The position numbers and the translations under genes are program-made. From IMG/VR virus record IMGVR_UViG_3300009548_000008, positions 1 through 53,352 of that record: DNA of 53,352 nt, one strand, 5' to 3'. The notes below the pieces were generated by a model. It saw only the letters and a list, made by a program, of their open reading frames with translations. It searched no databases and was not told the DNA's origin. Positions within the stretch are counted from its first letter, which is position 1, and every line of letters begins with the position of its first letter. Shown here piece by piece: positions 1 to 42,373 of the stretch. This DNA comes from a virus.

Positions 1-83
1 CCGCCGACGCCGCCCACGCCGCCGCCGCCGCCGCCTACGCCGCCCACGCCGCCGCCGCCGCCGCCGCCGACGCCGCCGCCGCC
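1..83 (+). repeat. GCC trinucleotide low-complexity tract
   Basis: A run of GCC codons is interrupted by GAC, CAC and TAC. It encodes the alanine arm of the truncated gene. Such a tract commonly breaks short-read assemblies, which explains why the contig ends here. Confidence 0.9.
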
Positions 84-179
84 TCAAAAAAGGATCGAGA
101 AAAAGCCCGCGAAGAGATGAAAACCAAGATCGACAAGTGGGTGATTTCCCATCTCAAAAATTGCGAGCAGGTGCACTAA
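3..179 (+). CDS. Ala-rich repeat protein, C-terminal part (5' end missing)
   Basis: The frame is open from the first bases to TAA at 177-179. It encodes almost pure alanine with scattered Asp, His and Tyr, then a charged tail ending in KIDKWVISHLKNCEQVH. This layout, an Ala-rich low-complexity arm followed by a K-I-x-K-W helix, is known to me from a family of phage and archaeal-virus proteins whose N-terminus reads like the last gene of this window (from 53246). I infer both pieces are one gene cut by the contig ends. Function is unknown. Confidence 0.75.
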   Translation, partial: ADAAHAAAAAAYAAHAAAAAAADAAAASKKDREKAREEMKTKIDKWVISHLKNCEQVH

Positions 180-16544: not shown

Positions 16545-16691
16545 TTGACGGAAGATCTCGGATCGCTCGTGGTATCGATCCGGTGCCGGTCAGTCCCCGA
16601 ACCCCGCAAGAATCGCATACGCCTTGATATCCAGTCGGGCCGCGCCGGGAGCAGTCTGATTGTTGAGGCAGCCGGGAAGGTGCATGAATGA
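16545..16691 (+). CDS. unknown protein, 48 aa (TTG start)
   Basis: TTG 16545 lies behind TGAAGGA. The product reads MTEDLGSLVVSIRCRSVPEP and ends VEAAGKVHE. Its stop overlaps the next ATG. Low-confidence small gene filling the gap before the amidotransferase-MuF fusion. Confidence 0.35.
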   Translation: MTEDLGSLVVSIRCRSVPEPRKNRIRLDIQSGRAGSSLIVEAAGKVHE

Positions 16692-18205
16692 AGCAGGCGG
16701 TTTTTGTTGAGCACACGCCCGGCGGAGGCCCGGGGTACCTTGATCTCTTGTTTGGCGATAAGGGTATCGGGACCACAACCGTACAGGCGCACAAGAGCGG
16801 CATTACCGGCACCGAGAAGGCCGATTTCCTTATCCTCATGGGTTCGGATCAACCCGTCAAAAAGATGCCGTGGTACGATGTGGAGATCCAACTGATCCAA
16901 CAGCATCTCCAACTCAAAAAACCGATCATGGGTGTATGCGCGGGCGCCGAACTCATTGCGCTCGCAAAAGGCGGAAAATTAATCCGACTCAAACACCGCG
17001 AGTATGGCTGGACGCCTGTAACGAGCCCCTTAGGATCCTCGTGGGTATTTGAGTGGCACGAGGACGCATTCAAAACACCCGCGGGAGCGCACGAGATCGT
17101 TACCGGCGCCGACGGCGGGATGTGTCAGGCATACCGGGGCCCCGGATATCTCGGCACGCAGTTCCATCCCGAGATGACTGCCCGGATCCTGGACGACTGG
17201 ACTAACAAGGATCCCGCCGTATCTGCAACCGCGAGCCACGAGAACGCCCTGCGGTTATTATCGTCGCAGAGACTCGCGGGGTATCTGGTCAATCTCCTCG
17301 TAGGCCCCAAATGCGCTTGCGGGGCCGGGCATCATCCCCACGTGATCGCCCGACCGTATGGCGGCGCGAACCTCGATCTGAACCGGAAAGAATACCTGAT
17401 GGCCCGGGTCCTGCAGGACGCGCTTGAGCAGATCGCCCGGAGGATCAACGATCAGGCCGGATCCGCCCGGGAAGCGCTCGCAGGGTTTGATACCGCTCGC
17501 AGGGATGTAACGGGGCCGGCATTCCGCACGCAGATCGAGCACCACGTCCAGCAGACCGTCCAGATGGGCACCGAGAACGCCCAGCGGTTGCTTGTCGCCG
17601 CCCGGGAGCGGCAATGGCACCGCCGGCATGGAGCGGCCGGTAAGAAATCGACGCCTTTTGTCCCCCCGCTGCCGTCCGTGTCGCCCCAGCTGATGACTCC
17701 TTGGAGTAAACTCGTCAAGGGGATCACCGATCATACCGTGCAACATTTCGACCGGATCGCGGATGATTTTAAAGACCGGCTCACGGACACGCTCAAGGAT
17801 GGATACCAGAACGGCGAGAGTGCGGCACAACTGGGTACTCGGGTGAAGGAAGCGCTCGGTGTGGATAGGAACCGGGCGAATGAGCGAGCGCGGACAATGA
17901 CGATAGAAACGTACAACCAAGCCCATATTATCCAGTATCAGGAAGCCGGGGCCTCTGGTGTGGAATGGAGTGCAGCAGAAGATGAGCGCGAATGTGACTA
18001 CTGCGCGGATCTCGATGGCTCAGTATGGGCGCTTGATGATCCGGACCTTATCCGGCCTCCCGCCCATTCCAACTGTAGGTGTGTACTCTTACCGGTGCTT
18101 GACGATATCCCCGACGATGCCCCGCAACCCTCGCAGGACACGGTTGATTTCTGCCAAGATTGGCGCGAGAACTATTTCGATATCCCGCTTTACGCCCCAT
18201 CCTAA
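16688..18205 (+). CDS. class I glutamine amidotransferase fused to MuF-type head morphogenesis protein
   Basis: Residues 1-190 form a class I amidotransferase: nucleophile loop MGVCAGAELI (C84), FEWHED, and the catalytic pair in GTQFHPEM (H160, E162), so the Cys-His-Glu triad is intact. After a C-x-C...H linker, residues ~230-505 are a MuF/SPP1 gp7-like domain: helical body, then ERECDYCADLDG and PPAHSNCRC, the family's zinc-like end. MuF proteins are minor head proteins near the portal and are often injected with DNA. The gene lies in the head cluster as expected. No synthase partner for the amidotransferase is seen. The enzyme may act on virion or host protein or small amides; this is inference. 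Confidence 0.85.
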   Translation: MKQAVFVEHTPGGGPGYLDLLFGDKGIGTTTVQAHKSGITGTEKADFLILMGSDQPVKKMPWYDVEIQLIQQHLQLKKPIMGVCAGAELIALAKGGKLIRLKHREYGWTPVTSPLGSSWVFEWHEDAFKTPAGAHEIVTGADGGMCQAYRGPGYLGTQFHPEMTARILDDWTNKDPAVSATASHENALRLLSSQRLAGYLVNLLVGPKCACGAGHHPHVIARPYGGANLDLNRKEYLMARVLQDALEQIARRINDQAGSAREALAGFDTARRDVTGPAFRTQIEHHVQQTVQMGTENAQRLLVAARERQWHRRHGAAGKKSTPFVPPLPSVSPQLMTPWSKLVKGITDHTVQHFDRIADDFKDRLTDTLKDGYQNGESAAQLGTRVKEALGVDRNRANERARTMTIETYNQAHIIQYQEAGASGVEWSAAEDERECDYCADLDGSVWALDDPDLIRPPAHSNCRCVLLPVLDDIPDDAPQPSQDTVDFCQDWRENYFDIPLYAPS

Positions 18206-40198: not shown

Positions 40199-40547
40199 AG
40201 AACCCTGCAGGCGAGCGCTCGCTGATCATCCCCGCAAGGTAAGCACGATTGTCCCTCCTCTTTCGGTCGCCATGACCCGGGACCGCGGGAGTCCATCACC
40301 ATGTCCCGGGGAACCAAAAGGCACGGGTTCTCAATGAGCGCCTAAGAGGACCATTTAGTTTCCTTCGTGAACAAGATACCAGTCCCATGGTACAAATCGG
40401 GAGGGCCTTGCACCCCCTCCATTTTCCATTCTCATGATTCTTCAGGAATGCCCGATATCTTTGATTTTTGGCACCATTTACCCATGTTACATATCCATGT
40501 ATAGAGAACTACTATAGGACCTGGAAAAAGGCCGTTTTTGAGCGAAT
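40199..40547 (+). other. non-coding stretch with strong hairpins
   Basis: No convincing gene. It contains the perfect palindrome GCGAGCGCTCGC (40211-40222) and a perfect 8-bp stem CCCGGGAC/GTCCCGGG (40276-40283 with 40303-40310). C/T-rich and T-rich tracts follow (40358-40366, 40425-40433). The first palindrome could stop transcription of the lysis genes; the second could belong to a small RNA. Confidence 0.45.
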
Positions 40548-40576
40548 CTTTATTATCCTATCATTTAAAATATATA
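40548..40576 (+). promoter_or_regulatory. A/T-rich promoter region
   Basis: TTTATTATCC and TTTAAAATATATACTAA lie 10-35 bases before ATG 40585. The first could position a transcript start just before that ATG; the second would start transcription downstream, near ATG 40606. Confidence 0.4.
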
Positions 40577-40584
40577 CTAATAAT

Positions 40585-40734
40585 ATGCGAACCGTAATAG
40601 CCAAAATGAACTTATCTGGTGTCCGAAAGAGCCAAGCCGCTGCCGTGGAGGTACTAAAAACCATGCTCAAGGACCACAAGGGCCGGCGCGATACCAAGAT
40701 CATCCGCGAGAAGATCCGGCAACTTGCGGTATAA
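40585..40734 (+). CDS. small basic protein, 49 aa
   Basis: MRTVIAKMNLSGVRKSQAAA continues VEVLKTMLKDHKGRRDTKII and a basic end. Strongly basic and helical; could bind nucleic acid. Preceded by TATA-like sequence and followed by a run of ten T, so it is a stand-alone unit. An internal ATG at 40606 is an alternative start. Confidence 0.5.
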   Translation: MRTVIAKMNLSGVRKSQAAAVEVLKTMLKDHKGRRDTKIIREKIRQLAV

Positions 40735-40747
40735 CTCTTTTTTTTTT
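40735..40747 (+). terminator. T-run terminator
   Basis: Ten consecutive T (40738-40747) directly after the stop of the basic protein gene; oligo-T runs end transcripts in archaea. Confidence 0.6.
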
Positions 40748-40781
40748 CAAATTTTCCAAAAAGGGAACCCTTATACTAAGA

Positions 40782-40833
40782 ACGAATTTCGTATTTAAAT
40801 TATATATAAATATATAAGATATTCACGAAATTC
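40782..40833 (+). promoter_or_regulatory. A/T-rich core framed by inverted repeats (promoter/operator or origin)
   Basis: GAATTTCGT (40784-40792) and its reverse complement ACGAAATTC (40825-40833) frame 32 bases that are nearly pure A/T (TATTTAAATTATATATAAAT...). The core contains several TATA boxes; transcription to the right would run through the hairpin at 40882 and the CRISPR-like unit at 41000. An A/T-rich core between inverted repeats is also the look of a replication origin. Confidence 0.5.
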
Positions 40834-40875
40834 ACAGATCCTGACCTTGATCAGATCCGGCTCGCAACAAAACCA

Positions 40876-40926
40876 GGTTCTGTTAACTTGACGGGTCTTA
40901 AAACCCGCTGTTAACTGTCGGGACTT
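40876..40926 (+). repeat. ~51-nt inverted repeat, left copy
   Basis: Begins with GGTTCTGTTAACTTGACGGG, then 14 variable bases, GTTAAC, two bases and TCGGGACTT. The same layout in reverse complement lies at 42379-42429. Inside, GTTAAC (40882-40887) pairs with GTTAAC (40910-40915), and CGGGT pairs with ACCCG, giving one hairpin. Confidence 0.85.
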
Positions 40927-40999
40927 CCTGACTTGCATTTTGGATCAGCGTCAGCCACTTGTTATCTCCTATGACTTCAATGCCGCACGCCTCAGCGGG

Positions 41000-41036
41000 C
41001 TTCGAGCGAATCATCCAAGAGAACAAGGATTGAAAC
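41000..41036 (+). CRISPR. solitary CRISPR-repeat-like unit
   Basis: The 37 bases from CTTCGAGCGAATC to GAACAAGGATTGAAAC have the length and the 3' end (AAGGATTGAAAC) of archaeal type I/III CRISPR repeats. Only one copy exists in the window, and no cas gene. It lies in a gene-free stretch downstream of an A/T-rich promoter and in the orientation that would give an AUUGAAAC handle on a + strand transcript. Solitary repeat units in phages are known to produce RNA anti-CRISPRs; that role here is inference. Confidence 0.55.
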
Positions 41037-41066
41037 TATACCTATCCGATATGGGGTTATGTGCAT

Positions 41067-41078
41067 AACTATAAATAC
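41067..41078 (+). promoter_or_regulatory. TATA box, leaderless gene
   Basis: AACTATAAATACT is centred ~26 bases before ATG 41100, so the transcript probably begins at or near the ATG. AACTTATAAATACT at 48434 is nearly the same sequence. Confidence 0.6.
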
Positions 41079-41099
41079 TGATACGACCTATGACTAACT

Positions 41100-41237
41100 A
41101 TGACAAAACAATGGAAAGTGAGTTTTGCCGTTTCGGAGGAAGATTTTAACCGGGGTAAGAAACTTCCCCGCGAGATCAACATCTCCGAAGAACTGAGAAA
41201 AGCATACGGAAAAATCCTCGACAAAGCAGGTGTTTGA
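41100..41237 (+). CDS. small ribbon-helix-helix-like protein, 45 aa
   Basis: MTKQWKVSFAVSEEDFNRGK then KLPREINISEELRKAYGKIL and a short end. Strand plus two helices as in Arc/antitoxin-type DNA-binding proteins. Leaderless from its own TATA box, directly upstream of the ibrA-like fragment and right beside the CRISPR-like unit, where regulators of anti-CRISPR loci are often found (inference). Confidence 0.5.
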   Translation: MTKQWKVSFAVSEEDFNRGKKLPREINISEELRKAYGKILDKAGV

Positions 41238-41238
41238 A

Positions 41239-41394
41239 ATGGTAACCGTATCAGGAAAATTAGCAAGATCATGGATCGAGGAATACAAAAAACAACCGGG
41301 ATCACATTGCGATTTCCTCCCAGTATCCCGGAGAAACCATACAATCATCTCTATGATCGAATGCATCAGGCCGGCCTCACGCTCCATCAGATGA
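41239..41394 (+). CDS. 51-aa ORF overlapping the ibrA-like fragment
   Basis: ATG 41239 follows CAGGTGTTTGAA, a fair ribosome site. The product MVTVSGKLARSWIEEYKKQP continues into a basic tail. It overlaps the next gene in another frame. It may be a leader that lets ribosomes reach that gene, or the true N-terminus joined by a frameshift. Confidence 0.3.
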   Translation: MVTVSGKLARSWIEEYKKQPGSHCDFLPVSRRNHTIISMIECIRPASRSIR

Positions 41395-41870
41395 GGATTT
41401 GCCAGCCCTATGGTGACGATCAGAGAAAAGGGCTCTGGTTGTTCCATATCATTGAACCGGAAACATGGTCAAAAGTTGTTGCCCGCGTCAATGGTGCGAA
41501 CCAGGGAGCGCTCTATGCGCAGGATTCCGGTGATATTCTCGGTGTTGGGAAAATTACCCGACCGCCGGGTCACACATGGGAAAGCTTCGCGCACCTCCTT
41601 TTAGAGTCGATGCCGGAAAAAACACGGGAACATTACGAGAACAAGATCGCCGTCTTCCTGCACTGGTATTCAGATCGGGGATATGGCAGGACAATTCCCG
41701 ATGAAGGCGAGATGACCAAAGACAAACCCAGCTGGAAACGAATATGCAAGGCACTCCTGAGAAACGATTATTGGTGCAAGGGACTTTCTTTCAGCCAAAA
41801 CAAACCGGTGGCGTATGCGAATTATGTTAAAGTGATGAAGAAACGGAGGGAAAAATGGGGGATATTTTAG
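41271..41870 (+). CDS. IbrA-like protein, C-terminal domain only (N-terminal PAPS-reductase domain missing)
   Basis: YDRMHQAGLTLHQMRICQPY, GDDQRKGLWLFHIIEPETWS, GHTWESFAHLLLESMPEKTR and PSWKRICKALLRNDYWCKGL match the DUF3440 half of IbrA-type phosphoadenosine phosphosulfate reductase family proteins as I know them. Full-length IbrA is about 400 residues; here the ~200-residue ATP-pyrophosphatase half with its S-G-G-K-D motif is absent and upstream DNA is non-coding. It overlaps the ibrB-like gene by 16 bases. Either a decayed remnant or a domain kept for another job. Confidence 0.7.
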   Translation: MDRGIQKTTGITLRFPPSIPEKPYNHLYDRMHQAGLTLHQMRICQPYGDDQRKGLWLFHIIEPETWSKVVARVNGANQGALYAQDSGDILGVGKITRPPGHTWESFAHLLLESMPEKTREHYENKIAVFLHWYSDRGYGRTIPDEGEMTKDKPSWKRICKALLRNDYWCKGLSFSQNKPVAYANYVKVMKKRREKWGIF

Positions 41871-42373
41871 AGTGGACAAAGGAGCACCCGGTATCTCATG
41901 TGCAGTGGGTACCGACTGAAAAGGTATTTGCAAACGATTACAATCCAAACACGGTTGCACCGCCTGAAATGAAACTCCTGAAAATCAGCATAGAATCTGA
42001 TGGTTTCACTCAGCCGATTGTTGTATGGGAACACGATGAAGGATATGAAGTCGTGGATGGGTTTCACCGGCATCTCGTGGGAAAACAATTGGGACTCACA
42101 CATCTTCCTGTGGTTGTAATCAATGGAAATCGCACCGAGAAAACAGATCGGATTGCCTCGACTATCCGGCATAACCGGGCGCGGGGAAAACATCAGGTTG
42201 CAGGTATGAGTGAGATCGTTCAGGAGTTGTCACGGCGTAATTGGTCAGAAGCAAAAATTGGGCGTGAACTTGGAATGGAACCAGACGAGGTATTGAGACT
42301 TAAACAAATCGGTGGTCTTGCTGAAATGTTTGCGGATAAAGAATTTTCAGAAGCTTGGGACGCTGAATTGTAA
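41855..42373 (+). CDS. IbrB-like ParB-domain protein
   Basis: The 172-residue protein has VPTEKVFANDYNPNTVAPPE, the ParB box GYEVVDGFHRHLVGKQLG, and a helix-turn-helix region (MSEIVQELSRRNWSEAKIGR then ELGMEPDEVLRLKQ). This is the IbrB partner that follows IbrA in bacteria and phages; the pair is known as transcription regulators in E. coli prophages and is suspected of acting with sulfur-type nucleotide chemistry. With IbrA truncated, IbrB may work alone as a DNA-binding regulator, possibly at the flanking GTTAAC repeats. Confidence 0.75.
   Translation: MGDILEWTKEHPVSHVQWVPTEKVFANDYNPNTVAPPEMKLLKISIESDGFTQPIVVWEHDEGYEVVDGFHRHLVGKQLGLTHLPVVVINGNRTEKTDRIASTIRHNRARGKHQVAGMSEIVQELSRRNWSEAKIGRELGMEPDEVLRLKQIGGLAEMFADKEFSEAWDAEL

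What the first reader, a model, noticed from the sequence alone, without database searches (positions are those of the whole stretch)
40782..41100. Solitary CRISPR-repeat-like unit in a viral non-coding locus: candidate RNA anti-CRISPR
Seen: 37 bases at 41000-41036 end in AACAAGGATTGAAAC and have the size of an archaeal CRISPR repeat; there is no second copy and no cas gene. It lies between an A/T-rich promoter framed by inverted repeats (40784-40833) and a small regulator gene with its own TATA box. Known: solitary repeat units in phages can make crRNA-like RNAs that jam Cas complexes, and some archaeal viruses carry mini-CRISPRs aimed at rivals. Inferred: a + strand transcript from the A/T-rich promoter would contain this repeat with an AUUGAAAC handle and a pseudo-spacer of ~40 bases starting at 41037. 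In an archaeal virus this would be new to my knowledge.
Basis: partly seen in the sequence, partly recalled or inferred. Interest (0 to 1): 0.85.

Follow-up and report, generated by a model that had tools for sequence, protein, structure and literature searches.

The report
Solitary CRISPR repeat in methanogen virus
A virus that probably infects methane-making archaea carries one lone, nearly perfect copy of the host's CRISPR repeat between two genes, most likely to make a decoy RNA that ties up the host's CRISPR-Cas machinery; such lone repeats are a known viral trick, but none has been tested in archaea to my knowledge.

Summary
The 37 bases at 41000-41036 match, 36/37 over the full length, the repeat of a 56-unit CRISPR array in a Methanomicrobiales genome, and 35/37 a ~80-unit array in a Methanoregula genome. 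The next best match in the window is 21/37. Rfam's CRISPR-DR7 model finds exactly these 37 bases (E = 2.3e-5) and scores them above the host repeat. No second copy, leader or cas gene was found. Both arrays belong to type I-B systems whose effector modules differ but whose Cas6 (89% identical), adaptation genes and leader are shared. The virus is a head-tailed archaeal virus whose MCM helicase resembles those of this order. The sequence after the repeat matches no virus examined and contains a palindrome and TATA box of the next gene, so it is probably not an acquired spacer. Best explanation: a solitary repeat unit acting as a type I-B RNA anti-CRISPR (Racr). That function is inferred; transcription, Cas6 cleavage and conservation are untested. 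It is a new, well-supported member of a known kind.

The parts
41000..41036 (+). solitary CRISPR repeat unit (37 nt), type I-B repeat of Methanomicrobiales
   Evidence: 36/37 to G001 array repeat, 35/37 to G003; Rfam CRISPR-DR7 E 2.3e-5 over 1-37
41029..41036 (+). predicted 8-nt 5' handle ATTGAAAC left downstream of the Cas6 cut (inferred)
   Evidence: sequence; Cas6 cut 8 nt from the 3' end of type I repeats is established knowledge; G001 and G003 carry Cas6b
40784..40833 (+). A/T-rich inverted repeat with TATA-like sequences; candidate promoter of the RNA or part of a replication origin
   Evidence: 24-nt arms 79% complementary; inner palindrome 40800-40817; promoter or origin activity is inferred
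40853..40948 (+). strongly foldable element (three-way junction with GTTAAC-CGGGT/ACCCG-GTTAAC hairpin) between the A/T-rich repeat and the CRISPR unit
   Evidence: RNA fold -31.2 kcal/mol, z -3.3 (+) and -3.1 (-); no Rfam match, no copy in viral contigs
41037..41077 (+). sequence after the repeat ('pseudo-spacer'); contains palindrome GTTATGTGCATAAC 41056-41069 and TATA-like TATAAATA 41070-41077 of the downstream gene
   Evidence: no match in viral contigs or phages
41100..41237 (+). downstream 45-aa ORF, function unknown
   Evidence: no Pfam or PADLOC match
40588..40734 (+). upstream 48-aa ORF (in-frame ATG of the 40468-40734 ORF), function unknown
   Evidence: no Pfam or PADLOC match

Best explanation
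41000-41036 is a solitary repeat unit (SRU) that mimics the CRISPR repeat of the virus's Methanomicrobiales host and works as an RNA anti-CRISPR (Racr) against a type I-B system. A + strand RNA, probably started in the A/T-rich region near 40790-40820 or reading through from the 48-aa gene, carries the repeat. Host Cas6 binds and cuts it 8 nt before its 3' end. The products (upstream RNA ending in the cut repeat, and/or AUUGAAAC plus a non-targeting tail) occupy Cas6, Cas7 and other Cascade subunits in unproductive complexes, leaving fewer for crRNAs aimed at the virus. Shown: repeat identity, solitude, intergenic place, lack of leader and of a recognisable spacer, and a host-group type I-B system with Cas6. 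Inferred: transcription, Cas6 processing, inhibition.
For: Full-length 36/37 match to the repeat of a long array, with the 3' 26 bases (Cas6 and handle side) identical. Rfam CRISPR-DR7 match on the exact boundaries, scoring higher than the host's own repeat. Only 2 of 232 genomes of the order have a copy within one mismatch. The arrays sit beside type I-B cas operons with a shared Cas6b, 89% identical. The virus is archaeal: MCM helicase with virus relatives only in archaeal viruses and 43-45% identical to chromosomal MCMs of this order. No leader similarity beyond the repeat itself and no spacer-like target downstream. As a class, related 3' repeat cores in 36 viral stretches are mostly solitary, and 20 of 29 solitary ones lie outside ORFs against ~13% non-ORF background, P about 1e-11. 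Racr mechanism and IMG/VR-wide SRUs: PMC10651486.
Against: No transcript data. The assumed promoter lies ~185 nt upstream, with a folded element in between. No conservation could be shown: related viruses found (terminase 55-57%) are 10-22 kb fragments in which this region was not seen and which have no such unit, and the 24-mer occurs in no other IMG/VR contig. No spacer of the three arrays targets this virus, so the host link rests on the repeat and the MCM. Adjacency to acr genes, typical of some Racrs, was not testable (no acr library; neighbours have no PADLOC hit). A recent neutral capture would look the same.
Confidence: 0.6

Rival explanations
1. Neutral or transient remnant: the repeat was picked up by recombination with, or off-target insertion from, a host CRISPR array and has no function.
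For: Single copy in a single virus, no conservation shown; near-identity to host repeats is also what a recent capture predicts. The Methanoregula genome itself has a stray repeat pair ~2 kb beyond its array, so repeats do drift.
Against: Exactly one complete 37-nt unit with no leader, spacer or array flank from the host attached; as a class such units are strongly non-random in viral genomes (PMC10651486).
Confidence: 0.18
2. Minimal mini-CRISPR: the repeat plus the following ~36 nt make a crRNA that, with host Cas proteins, attacks a rival virus.
For: Archaeal viruses SPV1/SPV2 do this with 1-2 spacer arrays (PMC6858448); type I-B crRNA could in principle mature from one repeat plus 3' trimming.
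Against: No second repeat; no leader; the first 18 nt of the would-be spacer occur in no IMG/VR contig and no phage record above chance; the stretch holds a palindrome and TATA box of the next gene, so it looks like promoter DNA rather than a captured spacer.
Confidence: 0.07
3. CreA-like guide: the repeat makes a crRNA-like RNA that leads host Cascade to repress a promoter (of the virus or the host) through a short seed match, as in CreTA.
For: Archaeal type I-B systems support this (PMC9458426, PMC8501985); the unit lies just upstream of a promoter.
Against: CreA repeats are typically degenerate (PMC9458426) whereas this one is 36/37; only three matches of at least 10 of the first 12 bases exist in the window, about the number expected by chance, none in this locus. 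Host promoters were not tested.
Confidence: 0.07
4. Integration or recombination site: the repeat serves as attP for insertion into host CRISPR arrays.
For: Viral integration into CRISPR arrays through repeat-like sequences is known (cited in PMC10651486).
Against: No integrase or recombinase among the window proteins scanned; no provirus with this terminase in 232 genomes of the order (though that search had no positive control). The record may be incomplete.
Confidence: 0.05

Closest known systems
RNA anti-CRISPRs (Racr) / solitary repeat units, Camara-Wilpert et al. 2023 (PMC10651486)
   Same: One intergenic, leaderless copy of a host CRISPR repeat at >=90% identity over >=90% length, no second repeat within 100 bp, no cas genes, in a virus whose likely host group carries the matching system
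   Different: Subtype I-B and an archaeal virus (functionally tested Racrs are I-C, I-E, I-F, V-A); the repeat here is barely structured, unlike the I-F stem-loop; no transcript or activity shown; a 96-nt foldable element lies upstream
[quoted passage not shown] 2019 (PMC6858448)
   Same: Leaderless stand-alone repeats similar to the host repeat in archaeal virus genomes
   Different: Different hosts (hyperthermophilic Sulfolobales versus Methanomicrobiales) and virus types (e.g. portogloboviruses versus a head-tailed virus); their function was left open
Virus-borne mini-CRISPR arrays (SPV1/SPV2; PMC6858448)
   Same: Host-type repeat in an archaeal virus without cas genes
   Different: Those have two or more repeats, host-like leaders and spacers against relatives; none of these is present here
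CreA antitoxin RNAs of CreTA (PMC8501985, PMC9458426)
   Same: Ectopic repeat used by type I-B Cas proteins in archaea
   Different: CreA repeats are degenerate and usually paired, with a spacer matching the creT promoter; not found here

Membership tests
Solitary repeat unit (SRUFinder definition, PMC10651486) | >=90% identity and >=90% coverage to a known CRISPR repeat | tested here: met
   36/37 (97%) over 100% length
Solitary repeat unit (SRUFinder definition, PMC10651486) | no full or partial second repeat in the flanking 100 bp (identity not above 70%) | tested here: met
   best ungapped 37-nt match within ~300 bp is 49%
Solitary repeat unit (SRUFinder definition, PMC10651486) | located in an intergenic region | tested here: met
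   between the 48-aa ORF ending 40734 and the 45-aa ORF starting 41100; only short ORFs of 42 aa overlap it
Racr (functional RNA anti-CRISPR) | repeat matches the subtype of the host's CRISPR-Cas | tested here: inconclusive
   matches type I-B arrays of Methanomicrobiales; the actual host is not identified by spacer or provirus
Racr (functional RNA anti-CRISPR) | transcribed and processed by Cas6 or equivalent | not testable with these tools
   no RNA data; Cas6b present in repeat-sharing genomes
Racr (functional RNA anti-CRISPR) | expression inhibits CRISPR interference | not testable with these tools
   needs an experiment
Virus-borne mini-CRISPR array | at least two repeats flanking a spacer | tested here: not met
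   one repeat only
Virus-borne mini-CRISPR array | host-like leader upstream and spacer with a viral target | tested here: not met
   no leader similarity beyond the repeat itself; no target
CreA of CreTA | match of the pseudo-spacer's start to a nearby promoter | tested here: not met
   three distant chance-level matches in the window; host genome promoters not tested

The most novel reading that the evidence does not exclude
The locus 40784-41069 encodes one composite decoy RNA (a 96-nt folded domain plus the repeat) that acts through Cas6, the part shared by two otherwise different type I-B systems, and would be the first functional Racr of an archaeal virus, effective against both effector variants.
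Probability: 0.2. Interest if true: 0.75.

Novelty: new member of a known kind. Interest (0 to 1): 0.5.

Why it matters
Racrs have been functionally shown for subtypes I-C, I-E, I-F and V-A in bacterial test systems. This is a clean archaeal candidate with a matching repeat, a matching Cas6 sequence and a clear system type, so the question whether archaeal viruses use repeat mimicry against type I-B can be tested directly. It also gives a host-group link for an otherwise orphan environmental virus of methanogens.

Tried and rejected
Chance resemblance: rejected (36/37 versus 21/37 next best; Rfam E 2.3e-5). Array fragment or mini-array: rejected (no second repeat). Captured host leader: none beyond the repeat itself. 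Pseudo-spacer against rivals: no target. CreA-type seed: chance-level only. Spacers of the three repeat-sharing genomes against this virus: none beyond 12-17-nt chance matches. Provirus relatives by terminase in 232 genomes: none (no positive control). Conservation in relatives: terminase relatives L083-L085 are partial and carry no such unit; MCM and DUF3440 routes gave no homologous intergenic region. Plasmid and phage collections: no real match to the unit. The GTTAAC hairpin element was not found in other viral contigs. Two general Cas6 family models missed the Cas6 of these genomes; PADLOC and direct protein search found it.

Full report
What was checked. The unit at 41000-41036 is CTTCGAGCGAATCATCCAAGAGAACAAGGATTGAAAC. 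A scan of 84,980 genomes for its last 24 bases found exact copies only within CRISPR arrays of three Methanomicrobiales genomes. Over all 37 bases the viral unit differs at one position from the repeat of HGW-Methanomicrobiales-3 (56 repeats, spacers 34-39 nt), at two from Methanoregula OWC_0058 (~80 repeats) and at five from BL5_bin5. The next best match to the host repeat anywhere in the window is 21/37. Rfam's CRISPR-DR7 model finds exactly 41000-41036 at E 2.3e-5, 34.8 bits, below its 37-bit curated threshold but above the 31.7 bits of the real host repeats. Among 232 genomes of the order only two have a copy within one mismatch and none an identical one, so the true host species is probably not in the collection.

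The host system. Both close arrays adjoin type I-B operons. G001 has Cas8b/Csh1, Cas7/Csh2, Cas5h, Cas3, Cas1, Cas2, Cas4; G003 has Cas8b, Cas7 of the Cst2/DevR group, Cas5, Cas3, Cas6b, Cas1, Cas4. The effector genes thus belong to two I-B variants, but the repeat, the leader region (87.5% identical over 305 bases that include the first repeat and the end of cas4) and Cas6 (89% identical) are shared, and the Cas1 and Cas4 proteins hit the same best models. An RNA recognised by this Cas6 would therefore fit both variants. This last step is inference.

The virus. The window is an IMG/VR virus record with a terminase, Mu F-like and gpT-like head proteins and a weak tail tape-measure match, i.e. 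a head-tailed virus. Its MCM helicase has its virus relatives only in archaeal viruses and is 43-45% identical to chromosomal MCMs of Methanomicrobiales. No provirus with its terminase was found in the order (no positive control). No spacer of the three repeat-sharing genomes matches the window beyond chance. The host assignment is therefore reasonable at order level by repeat and MCM, and unproven at species level.

The locus. The 365-nt gap 40735-41099 holds, in order: an A/T-rich inverted repeat (40784-40833) with TATA-like sequences; a 96-nt element that folds far better than shuffles on both strands (z -3.3 and -3.1); the repeat; then a 6-2-6 palindrome (41056-41069) and a TATA-like box (41070-41077) in front of a 45-aa ORF at 41100. 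The stretch after the repeat thus looks like promoter DNA of the next gene rather than a captured spacer, and it matches no other virus examined. The minimum of cumulative GC skew lies at 41388, so the A/T-rich inverted repeat may also be, or instead be, part of a replication origin. The assumed promoter for the decoy RNA is therefore not secure.

A wider class. A looser pattern of the repeat's 3' core (ATCCN5AACAAGGATTGAAAC) hit 36 stretches of viral contigs, far more than the roughly one or fewer I would expect by chance from 19 fixed bases in a collection of this size (own estimate). Most are single copies; after setting aside mini-arrays, 20 of 29 lie outside ORFs although ~87% of those contigs is covered by ORFs (ORF calls are simple, so the P of about 1e-11 is approximate). 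This agrees with the published SRU survey (PMC10651486).

Mechanism. The best fit is a Racr. In the studied I-F case Cas6f cuts the Racr and the RNA upstream of the cut nucleates a Cas7 filament without Cas5 and Cas8; the handle alone is not inhibitory, and a non-targeting crRNA also inhibits (PMC10651486). For this locus the same logic predicts Cas6 cutting between 41028 and 41029, with the upstream RNA, and possibly the downstream RNA that begins with AUUGAAAC, sequestering Cas proteins. Shown here: identity, boundaries, solitude, host-group system. Not shown: RNA, processing, inhibition, conservation.

Comparison and novelty. The unit meets the published sequence definition of a solitary repeat unit; the functional Racr criteria could not be tested. 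The claim of novelty in archaeal viruses fails: stand-alone leaderless repeats in five archaeal viruses were reported in 2019 (PMC6858448) and SRUs of archaeal hosts in 2023 (PMC10651486); a 2024 review also lists single repeat units in archaeal viruses (PMC11656645). What is added is a head-tailed virus of methanogens with a type I-B repeat and a named Cas6 to test. New member of a known kind; interest moderate.

Noticed in passing
window 40784-40948 and 41388: A/T-rich inverted repeat and strong hairpins about 0.5 kb upstream of the cumulative GC-skew minimum (41388) and 2.5 kb upstream of the MCM gene: candidate replication origin of the virus.
   Followed up: partly
G001:C11:113400-122100 and G003:C14:40200-48600 (L107, L110): Two type I-B loci share repeat, leader (87.5%), Cas6 and similar Cas1/Cas4 but carry different effector modules (Csh-type versus Cst2/DevR-type): apparent swap of the interference module next to a conserved adaptation/Cas6/array module.
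   Followed up: partly
G003:C14:32446-32482 (L109): A repeat plus a degenerate second repeat about 2 kb beyond the end of the Methanoregula array; the full copy carries GAG like the G001 repeat rather than the array's own GAA.
   Followed up: no
L113-L148: 36 IMG/VR stretches with the core ATCCN5AACAAGGATTGAAAC; most are solitary and intergenic, and their first 13 repeat bases vary widely while the 3' part is kept, suggesting only the Cas6/handle side is under constraint or that many host repeats are sampled.
   Followed up: partly
L114/L138, L135/L141, L147: Viral mini-arrays with two repeats 70-73 bp apart; one 117.8-kb contig (IMGVR_UViG_3300009528_000013, L141 and L147) carries two separate ones with diverged repeats.
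   Followed up: no
window 41271-42373: DUF3440 protein plus ParB-N protein side by side; DUF3440 relatives occur in at least 592 viral stretches at up to 83% identity, a widely spread phage gene reaching an archaeal virus.
   Followed up: no
window 16688-18205: Mu F-like head protein with an N-terminal class-I glutamine amidotransferase-like domain, an unusual fusion.
   Followed up: no
window 1-90: The record begins in a CCG/CCGCCGACG-like repetitive stretch, perhaps an assembly edge.
   Followed up: no
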